DNA from: a virus
Length of the DNA stretch: 64,000 nucleotides
Virus record (IMG/VR): IMGVR_UViG_3300042922_000886
Location: 1 to 64,000 of that record
Strand: one strand, 5' to 3'
Position 1 is the first letter of the stretch. Each line of letters opens with the position of its first letter. Positions 42,176 to 63,725 of this stretch are shown piece by piece. The notes beneath the pieces were generated by a model. It saw only the letters and a program-made list of their open reading frames with translations. It made no database searches and had not been told where the DNA came from. A program made the position numbers and the translations under genes.

Positions 42176-42436
42176 ATGACTTATGAAGAAGCCAAAGCAC
42201 ACAAACTAATATTAGAGAAAAAGAATAATACTGATTCTAGCGCGCTGCAATTCTTCGAAAGAAACGCTATGGGATTAATACCGGATCATGTTAGAGAAAC
42301 GCCAGAATGGAAAAGTGCTAAAAAGGCTTTTGATAGTTCTTTTGCCGAACTAAGAAACTTTAACGGATGGTTTGTTAAAATGTTTAAAAAAGAAATTTCT
42401 GCCGATAGAAATTATAAACGATACGTGAGCAAATAA
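42176..42436 (+). CDS. Unknown helical early protein
   Basis: 86 residues with GGAGGGA site. Basic and mostly helical. Its stop codon starts the junction hairpin at 42,433. Confidence 0.55.
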   Translation: MTYEEAKAHKLILEKKNNTDSSALQFFERNAMGLIPDHVRETPEWKSAKKAFDSSFAELRNFNGWFVKMFKKEISADRNYKRYVSK

Positions 42437-42450
42437 AATTTTAATTTTAT
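42433..42450 (+). repeat. Junction hairpin 1 (stop-AAA stem, 6-nt loop)
   Basis: ATAAAA-TTTTAA-TTTTAT. TAA stop is in the left arm. Confidence 0.7.
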
Positions 42451-42474
42451 CATCCAAAATAAAGGAGTGTTTAC

Positions 42475-42721
42475 CATTTCGCTATCATACAAAATCAAAT
42501 TGTTGTCACAAGAAGAAAAAAGTAAATTTATTAGCATGTTAGATAAATGTTTAAAACTCCAATCTTTTTGGGTTAAATGTTTACTTGATACTAATAAAAC
42601 AAATGAACAATGTGACTTTGCATTAAATAAATTATATTCAATAGAGCAAGAGTTCAGAAACCGATTTAATTATTTGGGTTTGGATAGTTTCAGATTAAAC
42701 GATAATAAACTGTGCCTATAA
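42475..42721 (+). CDS. Unknown helical protein, probable ATT start
   Basis: About 81 residues. The leader AAAGGAGTGTTTACC ends at ATT exactly where the near-identical leader of the 39,441 gene has ATG. The GTG in the frame at 42,467 falls inside the ribosome site and is unlikely to be used. Cys- and Leu-containing helices; function unknown. Confidence 0.55.
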
Positions 42722-42735
42722 AATGTTACTTTTAT
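42718..42735 (+). repeat. Junction hairpin 2
   Basis: ATAAAA-TGTTAC-TTTTAT, stop TAA in the left arm. A terminator follows. Confidence 0.75.
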
Positions 42736-42746
42736 TCCTTAAAGGA

Positions 42747-42770
42747 TCGGCAGCCATGCCGGTTTTTGTT
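42747..42770 (+). terminator. Terminator before the HNH gene
   Basis: CGGCA-GCCA-TGCCG then GTTTTTGTTT. Confidence 0.8.
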
Positions 42771-42915
42771 TGTGTCTAAGCGTCTATATTCGCTTTATCA
42801 TTGCTTATCCAGAATTTAAGTATATCCCTATGATTGAACCTAGAAACGTCTTACATTGGGTTTGTGGCGTTCTCAGCTCATATAAAATAAACATAAACAA
42901 TAGTAAATAAAACAT

Positions 42916-42944
42916 TTGTTTATCTATTCTTAGTATGATAATAT
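42916..42944 (+). promoter_or_regulatory. Promoter of the HNH gene
   Basis: TTGTTT (42,916-42,921), 17 bp, TAATAT (42,939-42,944). An A-rich AATAAAACA block precedes the -35. Confidence 0.5.
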
Positions 42945-42996
42945 TAATTTTAGGGATTCTATTCGCCCTAACATTAAATAAAATGGAGTGGTTTTT

Positions 42997-43638
42997 ATTA
43001 AAAAGTGTTCTGATTGTAATAAAGAAAAACCTTTAAATGAGTATTATTTCAACTTTATTAAAAAGAAAAATGGGGAAGTTAAAATTTCGTATCATCCCAG
43101 ATGTAGAGCGTGTTCGGTAATTCGTAATTCTGAATACCGAATAAAAAATGACAACAGAGAGAAAAGATTGGTGACACAAAAGCAATATAATAAACGTGAA
43201 GAAACTAAAGAATATCAAAATAAAATGAGGAGAGATGGATATAGAAAAGAATATTTAAGCGAGTATAGGAAAAGTAATCCTAATAAAATTAAAGAATATA
43301 ATAAGAAGTACTCAAACAAAAAGCATAAAATCACTATGAAAGAATGGGATGCCTGTCGTTTATATTTTGACTATAGGTGTGCATATTGCGGCAAAACTTG
43401 GGAGCAGAATAAAAAAGAAACAAGAAAAGATTTACATCAAGAACATGCATATGATGACGGTGCGAATGATCTAAGTAATTGTATTCCATCATGTCAAAGT
43501 TGCAACAGTTCAAAACGTGAAAATGATTATATAGAGTGGTATTCGATTAATAACCCTTTGTTTAAGCAGGAAAGAATAGAGAAAATAGATAAATGGTTAA
43601 TTGAGGAATATAAGAGATATATTGAATTCATCCAATAA
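42997..43638 (+). CDS. HNH endonuclease 1, probable ATT start
   Basis: 213 residues if started at ATT 42,997; the in-frame GTG at 42,988 overlaps the GGAGTGG site. Residues 2-35 form a CxxC finger ('CSDCNKE' and 'CRACSV'). The HNH core has 'CAYCGKTW', the His of 'HQEHAYDDG', 'NCIPSCQSCNSSK'. It matches the HNH at 62,400 in domain order, so the two are paralogues. Likely a mobile endonuclease, or a packaging-linked nuclease. Confidence 0.82.
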   Translation: MKKCSDCNKEKPLNEYYFNFIKKKNGEVKISYHPRCRACSVIRNSEYRIKNDNREKRLVTQKQYNKREETKEYQNKMRRDGYRKEYLSEYRKSNPNKIKEYNKKYSNKKHKITMKEWDACRLYFDYRCAYCGKTWEQNKKETRKDLHQEHAYDDGANDLSNCIPSCQSCNSSKRENDYIEWYSINNPLFKQERIEKIDKWLIEEYKRYIEFIQ

Positions 43639-43695
43639 ATTACTGTTTTCATTCACCTATTTAAACTATAATCACAGTAAAGGAGTGAGTACATT

Positions 43696-43914
43696 ATGAA
43701 TCAAATCACGAGTTTTTTAATCTATACGCAATACGGATTAGTTAATATCGTACATTCTCTAGAGGAATTGCAGCAGATTGAAAAAATAAATTGGATAAAG
43801 GTCGAGATATGGAAATTTGGAACACGTCAAAATGTTATCGAAAAATGGAACGGCTACGATAAACTAATGGAATATGCAATCTTTTATTTCAAATTGATTC
43901 AGCCTAACAAATGA
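43696..43914 (+). CDS. Unknown small protein
   Basis: 72 residues with AAGGAGTGAG site. Rich in Ile, Leu and Trp. Its TGA begins a junction hairpin. Confidence 0.55.
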   Translation: MNQITSFLIYTQYGLVNIVHSLEELQQIEKINWIKVEIWKFGTRQNVIEKWNGYDKLMEYAIFYFKLIQPNK

Positions 43915-43928
43915 AAACTGGATTTTAT
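43911..43928 (+). repeat. Junction hairpin 3
   Basis: ATGAAA-ACTGGA-TTTTAT. TGA stop in the left arm; one G-U pair. Confidence 0.7.
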
Positions 43929-44288: not shown

Positions 44289-44315
44289 ATAATACATAGT
44301 ATGGAGGCGTTCCAA

Positions 44316-47102
44316 ATGCACTATATTTACAAACGGGAAGCAAAGGTAATGATTGCTCATGCACTCGAAAAAAACGGATGGAAAGTTTACGGCTATCACG
44401 AAGACCAATCCGACAGCATGACCGACTATTATCACCCGGCCTCGTGGGATGGAATCGCTACAAAGAACGGTCATACACTCGTTATTGATAATTCCAATAC
44501 ATACTATTCCGGTTATGAAGTAAAGAAATATAACTATTCTGCACGTAAAGCTGTTGTAAATAACAATAACAAGATTGAAAAACTTCGTGCACTCGCTAAT
44601 GATGAAGGAGCGACAGAAGGAGAAAAGGCGGCAGCACGTGAAGGAATCGAGCGCCTAACAGGTAAAGAAGCAAATGACGAACCTACATGGACAGTCATCG
44701 GCACTTACCCAACGTTTGCCCACGGTAATCCGGGTAAATGTTCATGGCACATAGAAAAAGACGGTCAAATATTGGCTAAAGGAACCGGCGTGTTTGCTTG
44801 CAATGAGTATGATTGGGAGGACAAGACAAAAACAGCAGCAGAACAGAAACAGGAAAAAGTTACAGATATTATTGCTCGATTTGAAAAGGTATTAGGGGAT
44901 TCTGATGCACTGCAAGCCGAAGTAATTAAAGTTGAAAAGAAAATTATTAAACATGTAGAAATTGAAAAGACAAGTGTAACAGAAAGTGAAATTACCGAAT
45001 GTTTTACTTTTATTATGAAGATTGATTACACGGGAGGTAATTGGAAGGGCAATAAATGGCAGATGGTTAGAAGATATGACAGCGAGAAAAGCGGAGCGAA
45101 CTTTATATTTCAGCGCTTAGGTAAGCGCGGCAAGCCTGTTAATGGTGATTGGTGGTTAAGTGTTGAAAAACTTAATAAGATTCTTTCCAAAGGACACATT
45201 GCAATTGTAGAAATGCAAGAGGTTACAGAATACGAAGAAAAGACCGTATTTAAGAAAACTGGACGCAAGCAGCCTCAAGCAAACTTTGACAATGACGCTT
45301 TACCGGGAGATGTTGAGGAGGAAACAACAGAAGAAACTACACAGGAGTCCGCACAAGCAAAGAAACAAACTGTAAAGCATGAAACAGTATCCGACAACGA
45401 TCAAGCGACTAAAAAGCAACTATGGGCGCTACACTGTGCAACAAAGTTAAACACGACTAACCTTTTTATTACAAAAACTAAAGCGTCCGAGTTAATCAGC
45501 AAATCGAAAGCCGGTACAGATATAACGGACGAAGTGAAAGCATTATTAGGTATTGTAGACGCTCCAGAAGTGAAAGAGGAGTCGATAAAAGTAAATGCAC
45601 AAGAGAGTCAACAGAACGACGAAGATCCTGCAGATTGGATCTTAGACTATGCCACAAGTATTATAATGGATGATAATACGGATTCGGTTAAGAAACCGGA
45701 AACGGAGGAAGAAAAAGCAGATTTTAGAAACAAAATAATTGAGTATGTGAAGTACAAAGGAGATTCTGTTACCCAATCTCTTATCAATCATTTTATCTCA
45801 TTAGGTTCTGGCGTAACCATCTTGTTAATTGTAGAGGCTTTGCAATCATTGAACGGTTCCCATAACAGCATAGACGAATTAAAGCAGGATGATTATACAT
45901 TCAATATCGATTCGTCATATCTGTACCACGATATACATTTCAAAGCATGGAACATGGAAATAGAACAAATTGAGCCGTATTTGAATGTTCGGGAAATACC
46001 ATTTTACATTGCTGGTGATAAGTTTATATGTAAAGGTTTGACTATTGAACAAGTACAATTTATCGAAGGTTTGAACGCATCCAATCAGGCGATATTGTTT
46101 TATGATGATAAATACAACGAAAAGCCCAATAACAGCACCAGAACAGAAGAGCTTGAGAATCAGAATGAAAACACAATTTTATCATCCGATAACATTATAT
46201 ATCATAACTTTACCAGCAACCAAACCAATAAAGAGGAGACTGAAAACGAATATATGATTGACGATGACTTTTTAAGCAAATTTGATAATGTCGAAGTAAC
46301 AAATGAGTCAAAGATTGCCGCTGATGACTTGGAATTCTGTAAGGAACAAGAAGACATTTATAAAAAACTTATTTCAACGTATAACAGTTTTAGTAGTCAA
46401 TTGCAGGACATTTCAAAATTAACTAAATCCATTAGTGAAAATTATACTTATACTAATAATGGATATACGCATAGACACGATACAGCATACTCTAGCAGCT
46501 TTTCACAAAGCGATATTAATGAAAAAATTAATAAAATGAAAGATCGCTTTATTAGCACAATCTGCTATTACTTTGAAAGAAAATACAATATAACAATTCA
46601 AGAAGAGAAAATACAGAAAAAATATAAAGAATCCGTAACACTAGAAAACATTTTAGATGAAATACATATACAGTTAGAAGGATTCAATTTCACTGAGAAA
46701 GCAGAAAAAGAAATCAAGGACAAATCAAAAGAAATTGTAAGAAATAGTGATAAAATTACAATTAAAAACAACAAATTAATAATTGATGCTTGGTTTTCTC
46801 GCCTTGATTCAATTTGGAAAGAGTATAGAACTAACGGAGAAAGACTTACCAATATTTTTAATGCTCTCCAGCACTTCGAAAATGGGCAAATAAAAGGCAA
46901 TGAGGAACTAACTAAGAAATATATTGGCTATGATAACGAACGCAGCCAGTCAAACTATGAACGTTATGAACCGACAACATTAAGTAAAGTTGCTTCGATC
47001 AAAATTTTGAAAAATGGAAAACTTGAAATTGAATTTAAATCAAATCAACAGGCTACACAATTTGCAAAGGTTTATTGCGGATACAATCAAAAATCAGCAT
47101 AA
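44316..47102 (+). CDS. Large polyvalent-like protein
   Basis: 928 residues from ATG 44,316, with a TGGAGGCG site. Residues 1-120 look like a large-polyvalent-protein domain ('KREAKVMIAHALEKNGWKV...YYHPASWDGIA'). About 350-400 there is a helical motif ('ATKKQLWALHCATKLNT...FITKTKASELI') known from phage and conjugative-element proteins. The C-terminal 250 residues are Lys/Glu coiled coil. Polyvalent proteins are often encoded beside methyltransferase-helicases and travel with transferred DNA to protect it. The next gene is exactly such a fusion, which supports the idea. Function is inferred, not shown. Confidence 0.6.
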   Translation: MHYIYKREAKVMIAHALEKNGWKVYGYHEDQSDSMTDYYHPASWDGIATKNGHTLVIDNSNTYYSGYEVKKYNYSARKAVVNNNNKIEKLRALANDEGATEGEKAAAREGIERLTGKEANDEPTWTVIGTYPTFAHGNPGKCSWHIEKDGQILAKGTGVFACNEYDWEDKTKTAAEQKQEKVTDIIARFEKVLGDSDALQAEVIKVEKKIIKHVEIEKTSVTESEITECFTFIMKIDYTGGNWKGNKWQMVRRYDSEKSGANFIFQRLGKRGKPVNGDWWLSVEKLNKILSKGHIAIVEMQEVTEYEEKTVFKKTGRKQPQANFDNDALPGDVEEETTEETTQESAQAKKQTVKHETVSDNDQATKKQLWALHCATKLNTTNLFITKTKASELISKSKAGTDITDEVKALLGIVDAPEVKEESIKVNAQESQQNDEDPADWILDYATSIIMDDNTDSVKKPETEEEKADFRNKIIEYVKYKGDSVTQSLINHFISLGSGVTILLIVEALQSLNGSHNSIDELKQDDYTFNIDSSYLYHDIHFKAWNMEIEQIEPYLNVREIPFYIAGDKFICKGLTIEQVQFIEGLNASNQAILFYDDKYNEKPNNSTRTEELENQNENTILSSDNIIYHNFTSNQTNKEETENEYMIDDDFLSKFDNVEVTNESKIAADDLEFCKEQEDIYKKLISTYNSFSSQLQDISKLTKSISENYTYTNNGYTHRHDTAYSSSFSQSDINEKINKMKDRFISTICYYFERKYNITIQEEKIQKKYKESVTLENILDEIHIQLEGFNFTEKAEKEIKDKSKEIVRNSDKITIKNNKLIIDAWFSRLDSIWKEYRTNGERLTNIFNALQHFENGQIKGNEELTKKYIGYDNERSQSNYERYEPTTLSKVASIKILKNGKLEIEFKSNQQATQFAKVYCGYNQKSA

Positions 47103-47116
47103 CAGGAGCATAAAAA

Positions 47117-47146
47117 AGGAGCCAGCGTTTTTATAAGTTGGCTCCT
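47117..47146 (+). terminator. Intercistronic hairpin before the methyltransferase-helicase
   Basis: AGGAGCCA/TGGCTCCT, 8 bp. No T-run follows, so processing, pausing or translational tuning is more likely than termination. Confidence 0.55.
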
Positions 47147-47162
47147 AGAAAGAAGGTTAATC

Positions 47163-50100
47163 ATGTATCAGATATCTAATACGGTCATACCACAAAATAA
47201 ACGCGAGACGCTAAACAACAAAATTTTGCATCTGATCGAGAATAACCTAACTCAAAAATATAACGTGACTCCCAGTGATGTCTACAACGGCTATACGGGT
47301 TTCGGTGGTTTGCATGGTCTGAACTACAACGATTTCAATTCATATCATGCATTCAGTGAAGCGAAAAAACAAATCGAACTAGGGGCATTCTATACGCCTC
47401 ATCATGTCTGCAAATTTCTTATAGAATGCTTGAAACCTTCTAGCCACGATCTAATAACAGACATGACATGTGGAATCGGAAACTTTTTTAACTGGCTTCC
47501 GAATCATTCTAATGTATATGGAAATGAAATTGACATTCGCGCTTACAAGGTGGCAAAATATCTTTACCCAAATATCAACATAACAGCGGATGACATTCGA
47601 AGCTGGTCACCTAGCGTTTCGCTCGATTTGGTTATCGGTAATCCCCCATATAATCTAAAATTTAAAGTAGGCAAAGACGAATACCTTTCACAACTATACT
47701 ACTGTCTAAAGTCTTATGACGTTCTCAAGCCTTCTGGACTTCTCGCTTTAATCCTTCCAGCATCATTCCTAGCAGATGATTTTAGCGACTCAGGCATGAT
47801 CAAAACAATCAACGATAAATTTAACTTTATATATCAGGCCGAATTACCTTCTAATGTGTTCAAGTCTGTATCTGTAGAAAATTATCGTACCAAAATTATG
47901 TTCTTTCAAAAGAAAAGCGAACAAATAGCAGCCGATAAACCATATTCCACAACTTTACCTATAACAGCCATTGATCAAAATAGCAGCGATTTTATTTATA
48001 ATACATATATCAAGCCAGTTATCGAACAAAAAGAAAAAGTTAAGCATAAATTGTTTTTTGAGCAATTACATAGTAACAGTGGTGACGTAGAATTTCAGGA
48101 GAAAGTAAAAAAGTATCTCTTTGATATCAAGCGCAATAAATATGTTAAAAATTACTATGCCAAAGCTACTGAGTACGTGAATAGATATCACACGCAGAAA
48201 CAACCTGAAGGAATGAAGTGGGATGAGTGGGAAAAGATCAGAATCAAAAAAGGAATGGTATTGTCATATCTTAAGAGAATCATCAAGAATCAACATAACA
48301 ATGAACGAGATGAGATACGGCTAATTAAAACAAATTTTTCAATCAAACTCAAGGGATACTCTCAGAAAAATAAAATATATCTATCCAAGTTTACCGGAAC
48401 AAAAGAAATATCATTCAATGATATGATCCTTAATGGCTCCTATCCATTTGAAGATGAAACATATAAATTTTTATATAACAGCAAACGTAAAAAGTTTCTA
48501 GTGCAATCAAAACCATTTAAGCAGATTAATGAAAATTCTAATATCAAATCATGGTTAGACAATTTCAGCCTGTACAATCAGGAAAAGAAAGAAACAATTC
48601 ACCTAAAGGATTTTCAAAAAGAGGATTTACAGAAGATCCTCCAGAAAGACAAAGCACTATTGGCTTGGAATGTCGGCCTCGGTAAAACAGAAGCGGGAAT
48701 CACATGGATGTCATACATCAACCAGCATAAACATGTTAAGAATACATTCATTGTTTCATCTAGTATTTCAATTAAAATGACATGGACTCAACGGCTATCG
48801 AACTATGGCATTAACTTTAAAAAAATAGAGTCACTAAAGGATATTAAAACTTTAACAAAAGGCGAGATTGTGCTAATCTCCTTTAGTATGCTTGTTAAGT
48901 ACCAGAAGCACTTAAAACATTACATCAAGAAGCAAGGAAGAAAACTAGCATTGATTCTCGATGAAAGTCACCGCTGTATCTATCCAAACACAAAGACAAC
49001 GAAAGCAGCCTTATCTGTATTTCAACGTGTACCGTATAAATTATTAGCTTCTGGAACGCCAACGAAAAACAATGCTAACGAATTGTATTTACAATTCATG
49101 ATCTTGTATGGAAGTAGCATCAATTTCTTATGTGAGTGTGAATATATATCTGTAGAAGACAAGAAAACCGGAGAATGGAAAGAGGTTCAGAATAAGTACT
49201 ACATGAAGCCATTCCCACAATATAATCAATCATTGTTTTCTGCTTGCTTCTCGCCAAAAAAAGCATCAGTTTTTGGAATTGAAAAAGGCAACCAAAATAT
49301 TTTAAACTCGGATAAGCTGATTAAACTAATTGAAAAAACAATTATAGTGCGTAGTATGTTCGAAGTGTTAAACAGAGATATGGTCGAGTTTAAGACTCAT
49401 CGTATAGAACAGAACGTGAACGAAAAAGAAGTGTATCGGCTAATCATGGAGGAGTTTCATTCTATGGTTAGGAATTACTATGGATCGACTGGAAACCACA
49501 GAAAAGATACTATGTTGCGGATCATCCAGCAAATTATGCTTCTTCAAAAAGCCGTAAGTATCCCACATAAACTAAAAGAGTACAACGGATACAAAGAGCC
49601 GAATAAATACAAGAAAATTGTAAATATAGTAAACACTGCTAAGAACGAAAAAGTAGCATTAGGTGTAACGTTTATTGATTCGGCTACTTACTACTATCAC
49701 AAGTTAAGAAGCGAGTTTCCAGATAGAAGGCTGTTCCAAATCCTTGGTGAAACACCATTCAAAAAACGCCAAGAGACTATTCAAGAGTTCGAGTCAACTA
49801 CAAATGGCATCCTTGTTTCGTCCCAACAATCACTCTCCGAGAGCGTCAATATCCCATCCTGTGACGTAGTAATATGCGAAGGTCTTCAATATAACATAGC
49901 CAACATTATGCAGTATGTGGGACGATTTACGCGCTTAAACAGCGAGAATAAGACGGTTATTCACTTTGTAACATATATAAACTCATTAGAACAGAATATT
50001 CTAGCTCTATTAATGGCAAAGCAACGCATAAATGAATTTATAAAACAATGTGAGTACAAAGAAGATGCTGTGATATTTGATGAATTTGGAATCAGTTTGG

Positions 50101-50205: not shown

Positions 50206-50215
50206 AAAATAAAAC

Positions 50216-50244
50216 TTGATTTTTATAAAGTAAAAGTATATAAA
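50216..50244 (+). promoter_or_regulatory. Promoter 5, same type as 59.65 kb
   Basis: TTGATT (50,216-50,221), 17 bp, TATAAA (50,239-50,244), with the block AAAGTAAAAGTATATAAAT shared with the 59.65 kb promoter. Confidence 0.65.
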
Positions 50245-50809: not shown

Positions 50810-50877
50810 TAACTAAACATGATCCAATGAAATCAGAATTTTATTTGGAGTAAAAAATAAAAAATGGAGTGATAACA

Positions 50878-51264: not shown

Positions 51265-51471
51265 ATGTTAATACAATACGAAAAAATTAAAGTCGGCGAT
51301 ACATTGATTTGTAATGTATTAAGTAATAATGGAATTACACAAATCGAACATATTGTAACTAGAATAGAATTTTTGGATATGTATGGAATCAGATCAGATA
51401 TTAATAAAGAAGTTGCTATTCTAGGCGCAAGTATCTTAGAACATAAAACGTCTAATAACACAACAAAATAA
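51265..51471 (+). CDS. Unknown beta-rich small protein
   Basis: 68 residues, strand-rich ('GDTLICNVLSNNGITQIEHIVTRIEFL'). Start follows the previous stop with no gap, so translation is coupled. Confidence 0.5.
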   Translation: MLIQYEKIKVGDTLICNVLSNNGITQIEHIVTRIEFLDMYGIRSDINKEVAILGASILEHKTSNNTTK

Positions 51472-51502
51472 TGCTTTCATCGTCACTTAGGAGCGAACCA
51501 CT

Positions 51503-51748: not shown

Positions 51749-51868
51749 AAGAAGTTTTCGCAGCCCAATGGGACATGTTATAATTGTCATAATATACATA
51801 GGCTAACACTTAACAGTCAAGGGGAATGAAACCAGTCTTTCATAGGATAACAGAGAGGATTGATAAAA

Positions 51869-52117: not shown

Positions 52118-52173
52118 TCACCCTAAATAGGTTATAAAACAAGTATTTTATCTCATGAACAGGGGGATTGCCT

Positions 52174-52440
52174 GTGCGCTGCAAAGTGTCAAATGGGTAT
52201 GCAGAAATCGGAGATATTATTTCTGTTAGTGAGTATGGTAATGCGCAATATAAAGTCACTGAGTTTGGGGACTATGAAGGCGCGCCGCAAATTAGATATC
52301 GAAGGATTTTTCCTGAGACTGGTGAATTCTATCCAGATACAATTGGATCATGGATGAGCTTAGAAGATGCTTCAACGGAGTTAAGATTGGTTAGCCAAAA
52401 GAAAAAGTTTAGTCTTCGTAATTGGATTAGTGGCAGATGA
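52174..52440 (+). CDS. Unknown small beta protein
   Basis: 88 residues from GTG 52,174 with AGGGGGA site seven bases away (upstream TTG at 52,168 is less good). Strand-rich with basic end. Its stop starts a junction hairpin. Confidence 0.5.
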   Translation: MRCKVSNGYAEIGDIISVSEYGNAQYKVTEFGDYEGAPQIRYRRIFPETGEFYPDTIGSWMSLEDASTELRLVSQKKKFSLRNWISGR

Positions 52441-52454
52441 AAACGGCATTTTAT
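52437..52454 (+). repeat. Junction hairpin 4
   Basis: ATGAAA-ACGGCA-TTTTAT, with a G-U pair. TGA stop in the left arm. The next gene is on the other strand, so this hairpin ends a transcript. Confidence 0.65.
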
Positions 52455-52854: not shown

Positions 52855-53002
52855 AAGTTAATCACCTACAATGGAAGGTAAGATATCCTGTTATTTTATG
52901 AAGTGAGCATAATGATTGATTGGACACATCGACAAAAAAGTAATTAAATAAAAAGTATAAATAAAAAGTGTATTTCATGTGGTGAACTAGGAGTTGAAAT
53001 TG

Positions 53003-53131
53003 ATGAATAATTTGTTATGTAAATTGTCTGGACATTCACTTGATTTCTCAAAAGTTGTTGGACGACTATCAAAAACAAATTTAGTGAAATACAGATGTGT
53101 GCGATGCAACAAAATAGTTGTGTGTAGATGA
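53003..53131 (+). CDS. DUF1660-like small zinc protein
   Basis: 42 residues. 'LLCKLSGHS' and 'YRCVRCNK' give a possible four-ligand zinc site of the type seen in tiny prophage proteins. Its TGA starts a junction hairpin. Confidence 0.5.
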   Translation: MNNLLCKLSGHSLDFSKVVGRLSKTNLVKYRCVRCNKIVVCR

Positions 53132-53145
53132 AACGTATCTTTCAT
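53128..53145 (+). repeat. Junction hairpin 5
   Basis: ATGAAA-CGTATC-TTTCAT. Perfect TGA form: the right arm has C opposite the G. Confidence 0.8.
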
Positions 53146-53452: not shown

Positions 53453-53517
53453 CCCAAATAACATTAATAAATAAAAAAATCTACATTTTATTCGATAACA
53501 GAGGAGGAGCAAACAAC

Positions 53518-53706
53518 ATGAAATCTTTGGTTGGGTATAATGTTAAAGTTGAAACATCCAGACAGAATTATAGCGGAGTTGTAGTTGGTCATTTATTCCA
53601 GTCCAGTAAAGTAGATGTGAAGATTACAGAAGTAATCAAAGGAAATAAGAAAGTAGGAAAAGTCGCTCGGTTCTCAATGGATCAAATTACAACGGTTTCG
53701 GCATAA
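53518..53706 (+). CDS. SH3/Sm-like small beta protein
   Basis: 62 residues with GAGGAGG site. Five short strands and a Gly-rich turn give an SH3-barrel look, but identity is uncertain. Confidence 0.45.
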   Translation: MKSLVGYNVKVETSRQNYSGVVVGHLFQSSKVDVKITEVIKGNKKVGKVARFSMDQITTVSA

Positions 53707-53719
53707 AATTTGCATTTTA
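53704..53719 (+). repeat. Junction hairpin 6
   Basis: TAAAA-TTTGCA-TTTTA. TAA stop in the left arm; GGGAGGG begins two bases later. Confidence 0.75.
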
Positions 53720-53739
53720 ACGGGAGGGAAGGGGTTAAA

Positions 53740-54093
53740 ATGATTAATCTGTATGTTGACGATCTTCGTGATTGTCCTGAAGGCTTCGTTGTTGCTCGTA
53801 CATATGAAGAAGCAATTAACCTTGTGGAAAATAACGAAATTGAAATCCTTACACTTGATCATGACCTTGGAGAAGACGCCAATGGCAAGGAACTTCCCAA
53901 TGGATATGACTTCGTTAAATGGTTCTGTGAAAACGGTAAACGAGCAAACAAAATTTATCTTCATACCGACAACCCTGTGGGTCGCAATAATATGTATGAA
54001 ACGCTTCTCGCTGCTCAAAGAAGAGGTTTTATTGATGAAGATATTGAAATTTATCATTATCCGATTACGGCAAACAAATATTCTGGGCAATGA
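53740..54093 (+). CDS. Cyclic-phosphate receiver (cREC) protein 2
   Basis: 117 residues from ATG 53,740 (AAGGGGT site). 'YVDDLRDCPEGFVVARTYEEAINLV' and 'LTLDHDLGEDANGKELPNGYDFVKWF' repeat the key DD and DHDLG sites of the 52,543 protein. A C-terminal extension follows. Same predicted RNA-end role. Confidence 0.7.
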   Translation: MINLYVDDLRDCPEGFVVARTYEEAINLVENNEIEILTLDHDLGEDANGKELPNGYDFVKWFCENGKRANKIYLHTDNPVGRNNMYETLLAAQRRGFIDEDIEIYHYPITANKYSGQ

Positions 54094-54107
54094 AATATCT
54101 ATTTCAT
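54090..54107 (+). repeat. Junction hairpin 7
   Basis: ATGAAA-TATCTA-TTTCAT (inner T-A extends it to 7 bp). TGA form with matching C. Confidence 0.8.
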
Positions 54108-54122: not shown

Positions 54123-54284
54123 ATGGTTGAAAAGAAAGATTTCGAATTATTCACTAAAACATATCTTGCAGCAGGAGAAATGTTTGATTATGACGGGGAT
54201 TCTTATGTTACGATTTCTATTCTGGAAGTAAGAAGCAATTGGGAAGGAAAATGCATCATCACAGCACTTGTTGTTAAGCAATAA
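54123..54284 (+). CDS. Unknown small protein
   Basis: 53 residues, ribosome site GGAGGACT. Strand-rich. Unknown. Confidence 0.5.
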   Translation: MVEKKDFELFTKTYLAAGEMFDYDGDSYVTISILEVRSNWEGKCIITALVVKQ

Positions 54285-54297
54285 AATGTCCATTTTA
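54282..54297 (+). repeat. Junction hairpin 8
   Basis: TAAAA-TGTCCA-TTTTA; inner T-A makes it 6 bp. Stop TAA in the left arm. Confidence 0.75.
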
Positions 54298-54316
54298 ATT
54301 GGAGGAGTAAACGAAG

Positions 54317-54496
54317 ATGAGATATCCTACTTTATACGATAAGGATCAGATTGAATCAATTGTGTATCGACTTGTGGGCTACTGGAACAACGATAACTAT
54401 GTACAATTTGTTAAACAATCAAATGAACTTTATGAGAAATACGGAGAGTTTCAAGCAGATGAGTTGATGAAAAAGATTAAGCAACAAATAAAATAA
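54317..54496 (+). CDS. Unknown small helical protein
   Basis: 59 residues with GGAGGAGT site. Aromatic helices. Unknown. Confidence 0.5.
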   Translation: MRYPTLYDKDQIESIVYRLVGYWNNDNYVQFVKQSNELYEKYGEFQADELMKKIKQQIK

Positions 54497-54505
54497 TTGT
54501 TTTAT
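54488..54505 (+). repeat. Junction hairpin 9
   Basis: ATAAAA-TAATTG-TTTTAT. Here the stop TAA is in the loop. Confidence 0.7.
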
Positions 54506-55370: not shown

Positions 55371-55402
55371 AGAAATAAAAGAGCCGTTTTATTTACCGGC
55401 TC
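55371..55402 (-). terminator. Terminator of the SOS-type minus gene
   Basis: On the minus strand GAGCCG...CGGCTC is followed by TTTTATTTC. Faces the plus terminator just to its left. Confidence 0.78.
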
Positions 55403-56082: not shown

Positions 56083-56154
56083 GTGGATAAAAGGGTTATT
56101 TCAATTGGTTAATAAAGTTGGTTTGAATAAATTATTGGAGGCGTTTATTGTAAT

Positions 56155-56460
56155 ATGATAACTAACAATCGTAACGAGATAGTGCAAAAATCCTTTCAAT
56201 TGCAAGTTAGACTTTCTAAAATGGCTAAAGAGGATAATCAGAATGAATTATTAAAAGCTTTACATAGCAATCATAACCAATTAAGACTTGATTATCGAAT
56301 GAAAAGAATTTCATTTGAACAATTTCACGATGGATTTTTGTTAGTTAGCAATACTCTTGGTGAGATAGACAGGATTAGCACGGAGATACTAATGGATGCA
56401 GTTGAAAAGTTAGGACAGATGTCTTTATTGCATGGACGTCAAAATGTGGGGATAAAATGA
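56155..56460 (+). CDS. Unknown helical protein
   Basis: 101 residues with TTGGAGGCG site. All helical, charged. Unknown. Confidence 0.5.
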   Translation: MITNNRNEIVQKSFQLQVRLSKMAKEDNQNELLKALHSNHNQLRLDYRMKRISFEQFHDGFLLVSNTLGEIDRISTEILMDAVEKLGQMSLLHGRQNVGIK

Positions 56461-56497
56461 CTGTTTCATCATCTTCAATGCTTCAGGAGGATTACAT

Positions 56498-57363: not shown

Positions 57364-57855
57364 ATGAACTTTCTTGAACAGTTGGCGAATGAGTGGTACT
57401 CGTATACGGATCATTTTGTTCGCAATAATATTAAGTTTGATAAGCGTCCAAATGGAGGCTACAATGGAGAAATTGATGTAATAGCATTTAATTATAAGGA
57501 AAATCAACTAATTCACATTGAAGCTTCTATGGATGCTAATCAAAATGAAAAACGAGTTATTGGCTTCAATAAGAAATTCCGTTTAACACTAGGGGAATAC
57601 AACGAACTGTTGAAAACCGAGGCTACGAATATAAAGAAAATTGCAATAGTAGGCATATCGAAAACAGCAATTGATTTTGGAAACGGAATTCAGCATATTA
57701 CTGTACCTGATTTTGTAAACAATATAACGAATAGAATTAAGAACATTGATCCAATGAAAGCAGCAATTCCAGAAGGCTTCCCGTTGATGAGAGCAATCCA
57801 ATTTTCAAATTATTATATAAATAAAACAAAGGATGAAATTATCGTTAGGCAATGA
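57364..57855 (+). CDS. PD-(D/E)XK-like protein, possible nuclease
   Basis: 163 residues with AAAGGGGATT site. 'GEIDVIAFNYKENQLIHIEAS' has the spacing of an E..D...ExS active site in restriction-like nucleases. The C-terminal half is helical. Substrate unknown. Confidence 0.55.
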   Translation: MNFLEQLANEWYSYTDHFVRNNIKFDKRPNGGYNGEIDVIAFNYKENQLIHIEASMDANQNEKRVIGFNKKFRLTLGEYNELLKTEATNIKKIAIVGISKTAIDFGNGIQHITVPDFVNNITNRIKNIDPMKAAIPEGFPLMRAIQFSNYYINKTKDEIIVRQ

Positions 57856-57868
57856 AATGGTTCTTTTA
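57853..57868 (+). repeat. Junction hairpin 10
   Basis: TGAAA-TGGTTC-TTTTA with one G-U pair. Next site GGGAGG is two bases away. Confidence 0.7.
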
Positions 57869-57888
57869 ATGGGAGGTTGAATTGAATA

Positions 57889-59139: not shown

Positions 59140-59553
59140 ATGGCGGTTGCAATGATGGAAAGAGCATCAATTAATATTCATCAAACTAACTTTACTGCAC
59201 CAAAAACAATCCATAGAGGCGATATCTATTTTGCGGATTTAGGCGATGGAAGAGGATCAATTCAAGGAGGAGTTCGGCCAGTACTTATTATTCAAAATGA
59301 TATTGGAAATCGATTCAGCCCTACCGTTATCATCGCGCCTATTACAGCTCAAATTCAAAAAGCGAAGCTGCCGACTCATGTAGTGCTATCGGCAATAAAG
59401 TATGGACTCGAAAGAGATTCTGTTGTACTGTTTGAGCAAATACAGACAATAAATAAGTCCGAACTTGGTGATAAGATTGCGCATATCAGTAGCCGAGACA
59501 TGAAGGAGATCATTCAAAGTGCAATGCAGATTAGTATTGGTTTGGTCCACTAA
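59140..59553 (+). CDS. mazF: MazF/PemK-type RNase toxin, no antitoxin
   Basis: 137 residues with AAGGAGTCG site. From residue 27 it follows B. subtilis EndoA/MazF closely: 'RGDIYFADLGD', 'GVRPVLIIQNDIGNRFSP' with the key Arg, 'APITAQIQKAKLPTH' with the key Thr, 'ERDSVVLFEQIQTI'. A 25-residue N-terminal extension is unusual. No MazE-like gene lies next to it on either side. MazF cuts single-stranded mRNA at short motifs. Confidence 0.92.
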   Translation: MAVAMMERASINIHQTNFTAPKTIHRGDIYFADLGDGRGSIQGGVRPVLIIQNDIGNRFSPTVIIAPITAQIQKAKLPTHVVLSAIKYGLERDSVVLFEQIQTINKSELGDKIAHISSRDMKEIIQSAMQISIGLVH

Positions 59554-59622: not shown

Positions 59623-59646
59623 AATTATAAAACAGGAAATTTATAG

Positions 59647-59742: not shown

Positions 59743-59958
59743 ATGAACACAATAATTGAACTTAAGAATGTGTGGATCAATAAGTCATCAACTAAAGAAG
59801 ATTTTTATTTCTGGAGTGCTCGGTATTTAAGTGGAAAGTACGGTGAGGATTATCAGAAAGCAGCGAGAGAAATTGGTGAAATGATTGTAGAACTTCAACT
59901 TACTCGAATCCAATCAAACAAGATTTGGGCAAAAGCGAAGGCGATGCATTCAAGATGA
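59743..59958 (+). CDS. Unknown helical protein
   Basis: 71 residues with GGGTGGTG site. A related hairpin of 7-nt loop precedes the site at 59,709. Its TGA starts junction hairpin 11. Confidence 0.5.
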   Translation: MNTIIELKNVWINKSSTKEDFYFWSARYLSGKYGEDYQKAAREIGEMIVELQLTRIQSNKIWAKAKAMHSR

Positions 59959-59971
59959 AATAATCCTTTCA
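59956..59971 (+). repeat. Junction hairpin 11
   Basis: TGAAA-TAATCC-TTTCA; TGA form with matching C. Confidence 0.78.
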
Positions 59972-59989
59972 ATTGGGAGATGATGAAAC

Positions 59990-60503: not shown

Positions 60504-60925
60504 GCACACTTGAACAAGCAATAATCGTCGCTGCCGATGGGCATCAAGGTCAATATGATAAAGCCGGACTACCGTACATATTCCATCCATTACGAGTAAT
60601 GATGGCTTTAACCACCGAAGAAGAACAGATCGTTGGGGTATTGCACGATGTTCTAGAAGATACGGTTATTACAGAAGATAGGTTAAGGTACTTCGGATTT
60701 TCTGAATTGATTATCGAGGCTGTGAAAAGCGTGACAAGACGTGAAGGAGAAAGTTATTCAGTATTTATTCGTCGGTGTAAGGAAAATGAAATCGGTGTAA
60801 AAGTTAAGATCGTGGATCTGAAGGATAATATGAACATCTCTAGGATTCCCAATCCGTCTCAAGAAGACTTCAGACGGATTGAAAAATACAAAAAGGCACT
60901 AGCAATATTGCTTGACGAAGAATGA
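60500..60925 (+). CDS. RelA/SpoT-type HD hydrolase (small alarmone hydrolase-like)
   Basis: 141 residues from TTG 60,500. It has all signature parts of the SpoT/Mesh1 hydrolase domain: 'AADGHQGQYDKAGLPYIFHPLRV', the HD pair 'VLHDVLEDT' and 'VKIVDLKDNM'. No synthetase domain is present. Likely role: removal of (p)ppGpp or a related nucleotide, which would blunt the host stringent response. Confidence 0.85.
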   Translation: MSTLEQAIIVAADGHQGQYDKAGLPYIFHPLRVMMALTTEEEQIVGVLHDVLEDTVITEDRLRYFGFSELIIEAVKSVTRREGESYSVFIRRCKENEIGVKVKIVDLKDNMNISRIPNPSQEDFRRIEKYKKALAILLDEE

Positions 60926-60939
60926 AACGAATCTTTTAT
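60922..60939 (+). repeat. Junction hairpin 12
   Basis: ATGAAA-CGAATC-TTTTAT with one G-U pair; A-T flank makes it 7 bp. Confidence 0.75.
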
Positions 60940-61714: not shown

Positions 61715-61909
61715 ATGACAACACTAAAATCGAGCCGTGGAAAAGCAACTTTGAACAACGAAGAAATGGAAGAAGTATAGGAACAGATTAATGGTGAAGT
61801 CTGGAAGTTGATTTCCGCCACTAACCTCAAAGATATTGGAAGGCTGACAGACAATAATGGTTTCTACAAGTATGTCGAACAATTTAAAAATACACAAAAA
61901 CAATTCTAA
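61715..61909 (+). pseudogene. Small phage protein gene with in-frame TAG
   Basis: ATG 61,715 (GGGGAGATGG site) opens 21 codons to TAG at 61,778-61,780, then the same frame codes 42 more codons to TAA 61,907. The joined product would be 64 residues. As in the other two genes, the second part has no obvious start. Confidence 0.55.
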
Positions 61910-61936
61910 TAGAAAAAATAGAAAGGTGTGGTTATT

Positions 61937-62212
61937 TTGCTTCTAAAAACCTATGTGAAAGTAAATGATAAATACTATGCAGGAGAATTATCAGATACAT
62001 ATAAATCAAGTTTTTCAGGAGTTGGTTTTCACGACTATAAAAACTGCGAATTGTCTGTTTTGAAATTTGTTGACAATGAAAACAATGCTTACGTTTGTGA
62101 AGGTTTACGTAATCTAAATAGTATTATTGAAAGAATTATGCAAAGAGTGAAAGACAATGCGATACAGTTACAAAGAATCGAAATCATCAATGTCGGAAGT
62201 AATGTGTCATGA
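61937..62212 (+). CDS. Unknown beta-rich protein
   Basis: 91 residues from TTG 61,937, spaced eight bases after AAAGGTG. An in-frame GTG at 61,928 lies in the ribosome site. Overlaps the next gene by ATG-TGA. Confidence 0.5.
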   Translation: MLLKTYVKVNDKYYAGELSDTYKSSFSGVGFHDYKNCELSVLKFVDNENNAYVCEGLRNLNSIIERIMQRVKDNAIQLQRIEIINVGSNVS

Positions 62213-62349
62213 TGGATAATAAATTTAAAATTGTCTGTTGTAAATGTGGAAGTGAAAGTCGTTGGTGGTATATCGAAAATGACTACACTTTGAGTCTTAA
62301 ATGTAATAATGAAGATTGTGGAAACCAGAAAAATTATGAGGAAGATTAA
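62212..62349 (+). CDS. Small zinc-ribbon protein
   Basis: 45 residues. 'CCKCGSE' and 'CNNEDCGN' provide four Cys. Coupled to the preceding gene. Confidence 0.6.
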   Translation: MDNKFKIVCCKCGSESRWWYIENDYTLSLKCNNEDCGNQKNYEED

Positions 62350-62399
62350 AAGCAAATGAAAGGATTCTTGTATTGGATAAAATAAGAAAGGGCGGTTAA

Positions 62400-63101
62400 A
62401 TGACAATAAGTTCTAAGCCTGTAAGTGCAAATATTTTATATAAAGTGGTTGATGAAAAAATATATAAGTTATGCTCAATATGTGAAGAATATAAGCCAAT
62501 GAATGAGGAGAATTATAGTAAAAATAAAACCAATAAACGTGATGGCTTTCATCCTTACTGTAAACCTTGCAACAGTAGAAAATCTAGGCAATGGGAAATT
62601 GATAATCCTGAAAAATATAAAGCGTTAAATAAAACAAAATTGCCTAGTAAGAATCCAGTTAGATTGGAACGCTTACGAACATATAGAAAGACTGAAAAAT
62701 CTAAAGATTATATGACTGATTGGCGCAATAACAATAAAGATAAAATAAAAACATACAATGCATATAGATTGCAACACAAGACTCATGAGATAAGTCATAA
62801 AGAGTGGGAATATTGCAAAACTTATTTCAATAACAGATGTGCTTATTGTGGTCTACACTACAATGATCATTACCGAATGTACGCAGGTGAACCCCAAAAA
62901 ATTGATTTACACAAAGAACACGTTGACCACTTTGGTAGTAATAAAATTGATAATTGCGTCCCATCTTGTTTGTCTTGTAATTCAAAGAAACACAATAAAG
63001 AATTAGTTAGTTGGTATAATGAAAAAAATGTAAATTTTACGCAATATCGAATCCAAAGAATATATTTATGGCTTGCGGAAGACTATAAGAAAATCCAATA
63101 A
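62400..63101 (+). CDS. HNH endonuclease 2
   Basis: 233 residues with AAAGGGCGG site. N-terminal finger 'CSICEEYKP' with 'CKPCNSR', then HNH core 'CAYCGLHY', 'HKEHVDHFG', 'NCVPSCLSCNSKK'. Paralogue of the 42,997 gene by domain order and motif spacing. Confidence 0.85.
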   Translation: MTISSKPVSANILYKVVDEKIYKLCSICEEYKPMNEENYSKNKTNKRDGFHPYCKPCNSRKSRQWEIDNPEKYKALNKTKLPSKNPVRLERLRTYRKTEKSKDYMTDWRNNNKDKIKTYNAYRLQHKTHEISHKEWEYCKTYFNNRCAYCGLHYNDHYRMYAGEPQKIDLHKEHVDHFGSNKIDNCVPSCLSCNSKKHNKELVSWYNEKNVNFTQYRIQRIYLWLAEDYKKIQ

Positions 63102-63114
63102 AAGAAGTATTTTA
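63099..63114 (+). repeat. Junction hairpin 13
   Basis: TAAAA-GAAGTA-TTTTA. TAA stop is the left arm; GGGGTG follows. Confidence 0.75.
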
Positions 63115-63133
63115 AGGGGTGATGAAACGAAAA

Positions 63134-63286
63134 ATGAAAAACGCAAAAGAAATGAATCCCGCTGAACTTATTGATGAATTAGAGACACTTACATTGAAAC
63201 GATGGAATGCAAACTACACAGAAGGCTATAGACTTGATAATCGGTTAAGAGAACTTCGAATTGAAATGATGGAGAGAATGAAATAA
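63134..63286 (+). CDS. Small helical protein
   Basis: 50 residues with AGGGGTGATG site. Charged helix. Its TAA lies at a related AAATAA/TTATTT hairpin. Confidence 0.5.
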   Translation: MKNAKEMNPAELIDELETLTLKRWNANYTEGYRLDNRLRELRIEMMERMK

Positions 63287-63316
63287 GTCATTTATTTGGA
63301 AAGGTGAGTTATAAAT

Positions 63317-63709
63317 ATGAATGTTTACAAAAGCCTTGGAGAAATTGTGAGTGATTATAATGCGGGTGTCTACAAGAGTACGCTGCCTTATCCTACCGGC
63401 AGATTTAGAGAGGATCATGTCTTTGATGAAGACCAATCAATAAAATGGAATAAAGATGAGGTTGTAAGAAGAAATAGCGAATACGACCAGAAAAGAAATG
63501 AGTACCGTGCTGATAACAATAGATTAGATAAGTTACTCAAAGATGATGTAACTTACAACTTGATTTATGATTTTGACTTGAATCAAGAACAGGCCGAATA
63601 TACTTATGACATTGCATATACTGAAAAGCATTCTAGTATGACTGACGTATTCTATTATGCGGTTGAATTAGCAGAGTATTTTGTGAAAATGAAAGTACTT
63701 GAAAGATGA
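63317..63709 (+). CDS. Unknown helical protein
   Basis: 130 residues with GGAAAGGTG site. Tyr-rich with acidic helices. Followed by junction hairpin 14. Confidence 0.5.
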   Translation: MNVYKSLGEIVSDYNAGVYKSTLPYPTGRFREDHVFDEDQSIKWNKDEVVRRNSEYDQKRNEYRADNNRLDKLLKDDVTYNLIYDFDLNQEQAEYTYDIAYTEKHSSMTDVFYYAVELAEYFVKMKVLER

Positions 63710-63725
63710 TAAAAGAGCGATTTTA
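63710..63725 (+). repeat. Junction hairpin 14
   Basis: TAAAA-GAGCGA-TTTTA, just after the TGA; GGGAGG two bases on. Confidence 0.75.

What the first reader, a model, noticed from the sequence alone, without database searches (positions are those of the whole stretch)
42433..63725. A repeated mini-hairpin built on the stop codon joins at least fourteen early gene pairs
Seen: at 42433, 42718, 43911, 52437, 53128, 53704, 54090, 54282, 54488, 57853, 59956, 60922, 63099 and 63710 the same pattern occurs: W-T-R-A-A-A, six free bases, T-T-T-Y-A-W. The TGA or TAA stop is normally part of the left arm, and the next GGAGG starts a few bases later. Arms covary: TGAAA faces TTTCA (53128, 54090, 59956), TAAAA faces TTTTA (seven sites) and four sites keep a G-U pair. 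Loops differ. Related forms lie at 41515, 59709 and 63281. This is like the start-associated repeats of some mycobacteriophages in position but differs in sequence. It may set ribosome recycling, reinitiation, mRNA cutting or gene-shuffling by homology. I know no description of it.
Basis: partly seen in the sequence, partly recalled or inferred. Interest (0 to 1): 0.78.

Follow-up and report, generated by a model that had tools for sequence, protein, structure and literature searches.

The report
Address-coded gene-swap sites in phages
The repeated palindromes between this phage's genes look like a set of individually addressed DNA-swap sites, each with its own six-letter code, at which related phages have exchanged single genes; this would be a built-in gene-trading system in the SPbeta family of bacterial viruses, although the swapping enzyme has not been tested.

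Summary
The pattern is real: WTRAAA-N6-TTTYAW occurs 65 times in the 121,816-bp phage record versus 2 for the reversed pattern. The RNA-hairpin reading fails: arm positions 3 and 16 vary independently (odds ratio 1.02 over 213 sites).

It is a DNA dyad with a 6-bp spacer, found in many SPbeta-like phages, SPbeta and phi3T included. Four results point to a crossover site. (1) Homology between this phage and its relative G002 starts or stops at the element at 19 of 32 block ends (null 1.2). (2) At one-sided sites the spacer is identical in 74 of 99 comparisons, while the swapped-side arm differs. (3) Five genome pairs share 7-12 spacers in the same order with almost no flanking homology. (4) Within genomes, spacers avoid repetition (1 versus 7.9 expected) and self-complementarity (0 versus 9.3).

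Best explanation: a tyrosine recombinase, probably the phage's YopP homologue, exchanges small gene cassettes between sites with matching spacers. Enzyme activity is inferred, and several YopP-bearing phages lack the element. Nearest analogue: Acinetobacter dif modules, but arms and carriers do not match.

The parts
10363..10380 (.). element ATAAAA-TGTTGT-TTTTAT (late region)
   Evidence: exact; same spacer in G002
12372..12389 (.). element, spacer TGCTCA
   Evidence: exact
15808..15825 (.). element, spacer CAAACT, near the start of the 14558-15883 frame
   Evidence: exact
18939..18956 (.). possible element, spacer CCAGTT, inside the 18703-20265 frame
   Evidence: 1 mismatch; may be chance
25286..25303 (.). 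element, spacer TTAGAA
   Evidence: exact
42144..42161 (.). element, spacer GTTTGA
   Evidence: 1 mismatch
42433..42450 (.). element, spacer TTTTAA
   Evidence: exact
42718..42735 (.). element, spacer TGTTAC
   Evidence: exact
43635..43652 (.). element, spacer TACTGT
   Evidence: 1 mismatch
43911..43928 (.). element, spacer ACTGGA
   Evidence: exact
46165..46182 (.). possible element, spacer ACACAA, inside the 44301-47102 reading frame
   Evidence: exact; may be chance
50209..50226 (.). element, spacer CTTGAT
   Evidence: exact
50827..50844 (.). element, spacer TCAGAA
   Evidence: exact
51463..51480 (.). element, spacer TAATGC
   Evidence: 1 mismatch
51826..51843 (.). element, spacer CCAGTC
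   Evidence: exact; same address in G016 without flank homology
52134..52151 (.). element, spacer CAAGTA
   Evidence: exact; same address in G016 without flank homology
52437..52454 (.). element, spacer ACGGCA
   Evidence: exact
52961..52978 (.). element, spacer AGTGTA
   Evidence: exact
53128..53145 (.). element, spacer CGTATC (TGTATC in G002)
   Evidence: exact
53474..53491 (.). element, spacer TCTACA
   Evidence: 1 mismatch
53703..53720 (.). element, spacer TTTGCA
   Evidence: 1 mismatch
54090..54107 (.). element, spacer TATCTA
   Evidence: exact
54281..54298 (.). element, spacer TGTCCA
   Evidence: 1 mismatch
54488..54505 (.). element, spacer TAATTG
   Evidence: exact
55375..55392 (.). element, spacer GAGCCG
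   Evidence: exact
56087..56104 (.). element, spacer GGGTTA
   Evidence: 1 mismatch
56452..56469 (.). element, spacer TGACTG
   Evidence: exact
57852..57869 (.). element, spacer TGGTTC; G002 has extra DNA here between a TGGTTA and a TGGTTC element
   Evidence: 1 mismatch; homology blocks end at 57868 and restart at 57851
59627..59644 (.). element, spacer CAGGAA
   Evidence: 1 mismatch
59955..59972 (.). element, spacer TAATCC
   Evidence: 1 mismatch
60922..60939 (.). element, spacer CGAATC
   Evidence: exact
62356..62373 (.). element, spacer GGATTC; same spacer in G002 although neither flank scored as homologous
   Evidence: 1 mismatch
63098..63115 (.). element, spacer GAAGTA; homology to G002 resumes here, left arm differs
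   Evidence: 1 mismatch
63278..63295 (.). element, spacer TAAGTC
   Evidence: 1 mismatch
63709..63726 (.). element, spacer GAGCGA
   Evidence: 1 mismatch. Of the 37 window sites two are left out of this list (14953 and 46360, one mismatch each, inside reading frames)
35674..36714 (+). YopP-like tyrosine recombinase, candidate enzyme (frame open from 35578)
   Evidence: PF00589, PF02899; nearest solved chains XerD, XerC-like, XerA, IntI4, XerH; catalytic residues
10384..11367 (-). YomM-like tyrosine recombinase, second candidate
   Evidence: PF00589

Best explanation
Each element is a crossover site for site-specific recombination: two near-identical inverted arms (ATRAAA, with weaker preferences reaching outward to about 11 bp) around a 6-bp overlap. 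The arms are nearly the same at all sites; the 6-bp spacer differs from site to site and acts as an address. When two related phages share a cell, a phage-encoded tyrosine recombinase (most likely the YopP homologue, otherwise YomM) pairs sites with the same spacer, and two such exchanges swap the gene or genes between them. The upstream gene's stop codon often lies in the left arm and the next gene's ribosome-binding site follows the right arm, so each cassette stays translatable wherever its ends match. Shown here: the dyad, its positions, homology switches at it, spacer conservation across swaps and in some distant genome pairs, avoidance of repeated and self-complementary spacers, and presence of recombinase genes. 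Inferred: that YopP or YomM binds and cuts the site, that exchange is between co-resident phages, and that the spacer is the strand-exchange overlap.
For: Homology block ends at elements: G000/G002 19 of 32 in 56-88 kb (circular-shift null mean 1.2, max 6 of 2000), SPbeta/phi3Ts 7 of 51 (null 0.70, max 5). In one search, 11 of 40 genome pairs exceed all 200 shifts, among them 10 of the 10 pairs with more than 40 kb of homologous DNA. Cassettes bounded on both sides: 73349-73595, 73884-74663, 82965-83796, 85137-85384. Gene junctions 57-88 kb: homology break at 16 of 35 with an element versus 6 of 42 without (p=0.0047). 99 distinct one-sided comparisons: spacer identical 74, one mismatch 14, two 5, three or more 6; arm differences at the two most variable positions 45 on the swapped side versus 9 on the homologous side. 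Spacer-only conservation: G000/G017 8 of 8 shared spacers in the same order, G001/G015 12 of 12, G000/G016 7 of 8 (column-shuffle null about 0.8 in order, 0 of 500 reach it), without protein-level match in 500-bp flanks except at 2 of the 12 G001/G015 sites, one side each. 439 sites in 15 genomes: repeated spacers 1 versus 7.9 expected (p 0.004), self-complementary 0 versus 9.3, one-mismatch pairs 84 versus 124.5 (both 0 of 1000). YopP in 33 of 39 records at E<1e-30 (records not an unbiased sample), R-K-H-(R/K)-(H/W)-Y kept in 23 of 23 rows. G003 has YomM but no YopP and no clear excess (12 versus 7 control). Integration is probably not YopP's task: G002 has a 539-aa serine recombinase (no match in G000).
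Against: No binding or recombination was measured. Seven of the 33 records with strong YopP show little or no element excess: four lactococcal records (three phages, 949 twice), Sundance, G011, and G018, whose YopP is split by a stop; a lactococcal pair showed no obvious motif at homology ends. Six records lack a strong YopP match; of these G017 (32 versus control 0), G032 (26/2), G019 (9/0) and G020 (11/0) hold elements; all four are 62-100 kb and may be incomplete. Most of the 39 records were found by YopP or YopR searches, so co-occurrence is biased. Arg-II of YopP is Lys in 13 of 23 rows, this phage included. Only G003 separates YopP from YomM well; G015's lack of YomM is void because its record ends before that gene. 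Five crossovers in three SPbeta-phi3T hybrids fall in long near-identical stretches that contain elements, so homologous recombination is enough. Collinear sharing of four or more spacers was seen in 8 of 153 pairs only, three of them close relatives. Outside 6-mers are also shared: right side (RBS region) 3-9, with 3-6 in order; left side 1-6, 1-3 in order. 13 of 32 block ends and 6 of 42 element-free junctions break without an element. In one search, 10 of 125 G000 sites (one mismatch allowed) have neither flank nor spacer partner in G002. G016 has one repeated spacer.
Confidence: 0.8

Rival explanations
1. RNA mini-hairpin at the stop codon that sets reinitiation, ribosome recycling or mRNA cutting.
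For: Position between stop and next gene; dyad symmetry; at least two SPbeta elements overlap stem_loops annotated in that record (2622-2651 and 116406-116431). E3 alone shows an arm association (24 sites, p=0.035).
Against: No covariation: pooled odds ratio 1.02, p=1.0 over 213 R/Y sites of six genomes. 29 of 54 18-mers have no stable fold. The loop (spacer) is the address-like part, kept between phages with different genes.
Confidence: 0.03
2. Operator array for a dimeric repressor or roadblock protein (like stoperators; comparison recalled), for example YopP or another regulator acting as DNA-binding protein only, as MrpR does.
For: MrpR, a protein of related fold, lost recombinase activity and binds a repeated element in SPbeta (PMC10516654, passages and section 31). 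Palindromic DNA site; YopP Arg-II is Lys in 13 of 23 rows.
Against: A repressor does not explain spacer identity across swaps, collinear spacers without flank homology, or avoidance of repeated and self-complementary spacers. Most elements sit between closely spaced genes; promoters were not mapped. YopP keeps Tyr, Arg-I, Lys and both His/Trp positions.
Confidence: 0.07
3. Short boundary sequences used by homologous or annealing recombination (phage Sak4-like annealase plus host RecA), with no site-specific enzyme.
For: SPbeta and this phage encode a Sak4-like protein (yorG; 59% identical). Hybrid crossovers lie in long near-identical stretches.
Against: Constant palindromic arms at every site would favour ectopic exchange and are not needed for annealing (inference). 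Sites that share the spacer while both flanks differ offer only six matching variable bases.
Confidence: 0.08

Closest known systems
dif modules and pdif sites of Acinetobacter Rep_3 plasmids (PMC13141974: abstract, outline and passages seen)
   Same: Many sites with two recombinase arms around a 6-bp spacer; modules between them; [quoted passage not shown] single modules replaced with matching or near-matching spacers left and right.
   Different: There: XerC and XerD with two different arms, plasmids, inversions and deletions of modules. Here: phage genomes, inverted copies of one arm, phage-encoded YopP/YomM candidates, spacers almost never repeated within a genome and in fixed order between some genomes.
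SPBRE, the MrpR-bound repeat of SPbeta (PMC10516654: passages and section 31 seen)
   Same: Repeated intergenic element of SPbeta linked to a tyrosine-recombinase-fold protein.
   Different: The regions upstream of nine of ten reported MrpR targets share AATATGTAT; the present element is ATAAAA-N6-TTTTAT and mostly lies between neighbouring genes.
Cre/lox or Flp cassette exchange with heterospecific sites; integrons (recalled)
   Same: Spacer-matched sites exchange cassettes; tyrosine recombinases (fold matches include Cre and an integron integrase).
   Different: Laboratory design, or attI/attC logic without per-site addresses.
Start-associated sequences and stoperators of mycobacteriophages (recalled)
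   Same: Repeats in short gaps between phage genes.
   Different: Not compared by sequence here; no spacer addresses known to me.

Membership tests
dif modules / pdif sites | 6-bp spacer between two recombinase arms, spacers matched in exchanging sites | tested here: met
   spacer length 6 is the enriched one; 74 of 99 identical at one-sided sites; that the arms bind a recombinase is not shown
dif modules / pdif sites | distinct XerC and XerD arms giving the site an orientation | tested here: not met
   arms are inverted copies of ATRAAA
dif modules / pdif sites | carried by Acinetobacter Rep_3 plasmids | tested here: not met
   carrier is an SPbeta-like phage
dif modules / pdif sites | recombined by host XerCD | not testable with these tools
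   needs bench assay
Tyrosine recombinases (YopP homologue) | Phage_integrase domain with R, K, H, R, H/W, Y | tested here: inconclusive
   domain found; all positions kept in 23 of 23 rows except Arg-II, which is R in 10 and K in 13
Tyrosine recombinases (YopP homologue) | fold of Xer/Cre/Int enzymes | tested here: met
   model pLDDT 80.1, pTM 0.57; Foldseek E 3.6e-9 to XerA, 1.3e-8 to XerH, TM-scores about 0.4-0.6
SPBRE / MrpR operator | sequence shared upstream of MrpR targets | tested here: not met
   different sequence
Conserved RNA hairpin | compensatory changes between arms | tested here: not met
   odds ratio 1.02 over 213 sites
Site-specific recombination site | recombination of matched sites in the presence of the enzyme | not testable with these tools
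   needs bench assay

The most novel reading that the evidence does not exclude
SPbeta-like phages carry a genome-wide addressed gene-exchange system: dozens of heterospecific recombination sites per genome, each with its own 6-bp code, kept in the same order even between phages that share almost nothing else around those sites, so that a phage-encoded recombinase can trade single genes, counter-defence genes included, without scrambling the genome. It would be a natural counterpart of engineered cassette exchange and an enzyme-driven cause of phage mosaicism.
Probability: 0.6. Interest if true: 0.95.

Novelty: new variant of a known kind. Interest (0 to 1): 0.88.

Why it matters
Phage mosaicism is usually ascribed to illegitimate or homologous recombination followed by selection (general knowledge). 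A dedicated site system with addresses would make gene trading in a phage family an encoded function, predict which genes can move where, and give a library of mutually orthogonal recombination sites. It is directly testable in B. subtilis 168 with SPbeta and phi3T. The known counter-defence gene nip of phi3T (PMC11984713) lies between two elements, GATAGT and TATTTA, that SPbeta carries around the matching gene yoqT.

Tried and rejected
RNA hairpin: rejected on covariation and folding. SPBRE/MrpR site: my first idea; rejected when the sequence upstream of MrpR targets proved different. YonO late promoter: considered because of late-region sites; not pursued, since most sites are in the early region and the YonO promoter sequence was left open in PMC5467207 (passages). 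YomM as enzyme: not excluded; G015 looked like evidence against it until its record proved to end before the gene. Hybrid phages as a decisive test: five crossovers in Hyb1, Hyb2 and PP526179, none diagnostic; Hyb3 was not fetched beyond 3 kb. Lactococcal 949/L47 comparison: no obvious motif at homology ends in about 21 kb. Outside 6-mers as control: not clean on the right side because of the ribosome-binding site. Wrong-spacer control for self-complementary spacers: 2 of 125 pseudo-sites (spacers 4, 8, 10; outer three bases on each side), too few to tell. Genome-collection scan for YopP: 9 loci, mostly weak. In one search, 10 one-sided rows with differing spacers are listed; I read most as false flank matches because their partners are far out of order. 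That is a judgement; one search repeats the count by block coordinates. Parts leaves out two of 37 window sites (14953, 46360). Several records were used in part only: SPbeta 129,999 of 134,416 bases, G012 160,000 of 164,521, G024 100,000 of 127,460, G020 80,000 of 100,409, G011 80,000 of 158,514, E3 140,000 of 141,298, Perkons 120,000 of 136,811, BcoS-136 160,000 of 160,590, Alicyclobacillus KKP_3916 80,000 of 120,131. Lazarevic et al. 1999 (SPbeta genome) was not read, so a description of this repeat there cannot be excluded. Paper searches made; I saw no description of this element in their listings or in the passages read, in an open-licence library only.

Full report
What the record is. 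The window is bases 1-64000 of a 121,816-bp IMG/VR virus record, here G000. It is a distant SPbeta-like phage: 25 of its reading frames (one a shadow frame) match SPbeta frames at E<=1e-4, among them homologues of the tape-measure, YonO RNA polymerase, YomM, YopP, YopQ, YopR/MrpR and YorG proteins. Its closest relative found is G002, a 183,208-bp record. The host is not known.

Observation. The pattern occurs 65 times in the record against 2 for the reversed pattern, 30 times in the window against 1. A search over 5-bp arms and spacers of 3 to 12 finds TAAAA-N6-TTTTA as the strongest gapped palindrome in this record (22 versus 1.7 expected) and in SPbeta, G002, phi3Ts, two hybrids, Geobacillus E3, B. 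cohnii 136, Mammaliicoccus phi127, a Staphylococcus SPbeta-like phage and Psychrobacillus Perkons; in G001 and Alicyclobacillus KKP_3916 the top palindrome is the same site in another register. Not so in G003, G004, G015, lactococcal 949 or Sundance. With the third arm base free (ATNAAA-N6-TTTNAT), G015 (34 versus a mean of 4.8 at twelve other spacers) and G004 (8 versus 1.9) also show it; G003 (12 versus 5.3, maximum 11), 949 (3 versus 2.4) and Sundance (5 versus 2.6) do not.

Not an RNA hairpin. Arm bases 3 and 16 vary as R and Y independently: in G000 16/17/10/10, pooled over six other genomes 64/53/52/44 (213 sites with R and Y at these positions), Fisher p=1.0, odds ratio 1.02 (E3 alone gives p=0.035 on 24 sites). 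29 of 54 18-mers do not fold. The symmetry belongs to DNA. Weak preferences extend about five bases beyond each arm, partly confounded by the ribosome-binding site.

Not SPBRE. I took regions upstream of the ten MrpR targets named in PMC10516654; nine share AATATGTAT, unlike the present element.

Homology switches at the element. G000 and G002 are nearly identical over long stretches and different in a mosaic region at about 57-86 kb. Blocks of homology begin and end at elements: 73349-73595 with elements at 73350 and 73578, 73884-74663 with 73884 and 74646, 85137-85384 with 85138 and 85363. In 56-88 kb 19 of 32 block ends fall on elements (null mean 1.2, maximum 6 in 2000 circular shifts), 13 do not; SPbeta versus phi3Ts 7 of 51 (0.70; 5). 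BLAST can extend through the similar arms, so the fair control is gene junctions: 16 of 35 with an element show a break, 6 of 42 without (p=0.0047). In a larger comparison 11 of 40 pairs exceed all 200 shifts, for example SPbeta/G023 14 of 98 (null 1.66) and G013/G027 10 of 86 (1.34); these include all ten pairs with over 40 kb of homologous DNA, while pairs with little homology mostly show 0. At 57852 G002 carries extra DNA between two elements, TGGTTA and TGGTTC, where G000 has one, TGGTTC.

The spacer is conserved across swaps. In 99 distinct comparisons where only one flank is homologous, the spacer is identical in 74, differs at one base in 14, at two in 5, at three or more in 6. Differences per position are 3,3,6,2,3,2 in the arm on the homologous side, 8,9,9,6,11,8 in the spacer (27 of these 51 from the six poorest comparisons), and 4,3,3,21,3,24 in the arm on the swapped side. 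Clean cases in G000/G002 are 63098, 67041, 82960 and 85363, where only the swapped-side arm changed; at 72442 and 73884 both arms changed. Five G000 sites (62356, 69846, 74995, 76622, 84820) share the spacer with G002 though neither flank scored as homologous; ten sites have no partner. This places the switch at or inside the spacer. The pairs are not all independent.

The spacer alone is conserved in some distant pairs. Among 153 genome pairs, 8 share four or more spacers in order: three close pairs with flank homology, and five (G000 or G002 with G016 and G017, and G001 with G015) almost without. G000 and G017 share 8 spacers, all in the same order; G001 and G015 share 12, all in order; G000 and G016 share 8, 7 in order (null mean about 0.8 in order, 0 of 500 column shuffles reach the observed value). 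If k shared unique spacers were placed at random, perfect order has probability 1/k!, 2.5e-5 for 8 and 2.1e-9 for 12. In 500-bp flanks no protein-level match was found for G000/G016 and G000/G017, and a one-sided match at 2 of 12 sites for G001/G015; those two phages are otherwise related (YopR 78% identical, about 13 kb alignable). G001/E3 and G015/E3 share no more than chance. Words just outside the arms are shared too, right side 3-9 (3-6 in order), left side 1-6 (1-3 in order).

Spacers avoid what a recombinase would not tolerate. In 439 exact sites of 15 genomes, repeated spacers number 1 against 7.9 expected by column shuffling (p=0.004), self-complementary spacers 0 against 9.3 (0 of 1000), and pairs one mismatch apart 84 against 124.5 (0 of 1000); pseudo-sites with wrong spacer lengths gave 2 self-complementary of 125, too few to compare. 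Repeats would allow deletion or inversion; self-complementary overlaps would lose direction. That reading rests on general knowledge of tyrosine recombinases.

Candidate enzyme. G000 and G002 each have two Phage_integrase-domain matches, YopP-like and YomM-like; G002 also has a 539-aa serine recombinase, G000 none; SPbeta integrates by the serine recombinase SprA (PMC8270828, passages), so integration is probably not their task. YopP is found at E<1e-30 in 33 of 39 records, most of which were found by YopP or YopR searches. Its Arg-I, Lys, His-II, His/Trp-III and Tyr are kept in 23 of 23 aligned rows, some redundant; Arg-II is Arg in 10 and Lys in 13, this phage included. The model of the window protein (pLDDT 80.1, pTM 0.57) matches XerA, XerH, an integron integrase and Cre. 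For YopP over YomM: G003, a 138-kb record, has YomM, lacks YopP and shows no clear excess (12 versus control 7); Alicyclobacillus KKP_3916 has YopP, only a weak YomM-like match (1.4e-14) and 12 elements versus 0. Against: lactococcal phages, Sundance and G011 have YopP with little or no excess, and four shorter records hold elements without a strong YopP match. I put YopP at about 0.6.

What is exchanged. Between most neighbouring elements examined lie one to three small frames; the region also has a MazF/PemK-like toxin frame, an HD phosphohydrolase-like frame and HNH endonuclease-like frames. In phi3T the counter-defence gene nip (phi3T_120; PMC11984713, passages and section 9) sits between elements GATAGT and TATTTA at 83281 and 84633; SPbeta has the same two spacers at 92393 and 92752 around yoqT. 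In that paper ten hybrids selected for resistance all held phi3T_120 and phi3T_121; I did not see their junctions.

Results that do not help. Crossovers in Hyb1, Hyb2 and PP526179 lie in near-identical stretches of 1.4 to 18 kb that include elements, which homologous recombination explains equally. The edges of some of these stretches sit at elements (31973, 104631, 106011-106028, 119044-119061), as expected of older exchanges there.

Comparison and verdict. [quoted passage not shown] I saw no description in ten searches of an open-licence library; the 1999 SPbeta genome paper was not read. I rate it a new variant of a known kind, with a fair chance that it deserves a category of its own once the enzyme is tested.

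Noticed in passing
window 30898-33648 (-): Distant homologue (24% identity) of YonO, the single-chain RNA polymerase of SPbeta; no Pfam match at E 0.001.
   Followed up: no
window 44301-50183: Two large adjacent frames: a 933-aa protein of unknown function (phrog_27491) and a 1006-aa N6-methylase/helicase fusion; could be a defence or anti-restriction pair.
   Followed up: no
window 59140-59553: MazF/PemK-like toxin frame within the cassette region (PF02452, E 5.7e-30).
   Followed up: no
window 42988-43638 and 62400-63101: Two HNH endonuclease-like paralogues, both matching SPbeta YoqL.
   Followed up: no
L006 2454-4760: YopQ (DndB-like domain) and YopR/MrpR homologues side by side, far from YopP in this phage but next to it in SPbeta, phi3T, E3 and Perkons.
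   Followed up: partly
L280 (phi3T 83281-84650) and SPbeta 92393-92769: The counter-defence gene nip is an element-bounded cassette with the same two addresses in SPbeta.
   Followed up: partly
G018 73526-74499: YopP homologue split by an in-frame stop in this 83-kb record.
   Followed up: no
SPbeta upstream regions (L008, L009): Nine of ten MrpR-target upstream regions share AATATGTAT, a handy SPBRE core.
   Followed up: no
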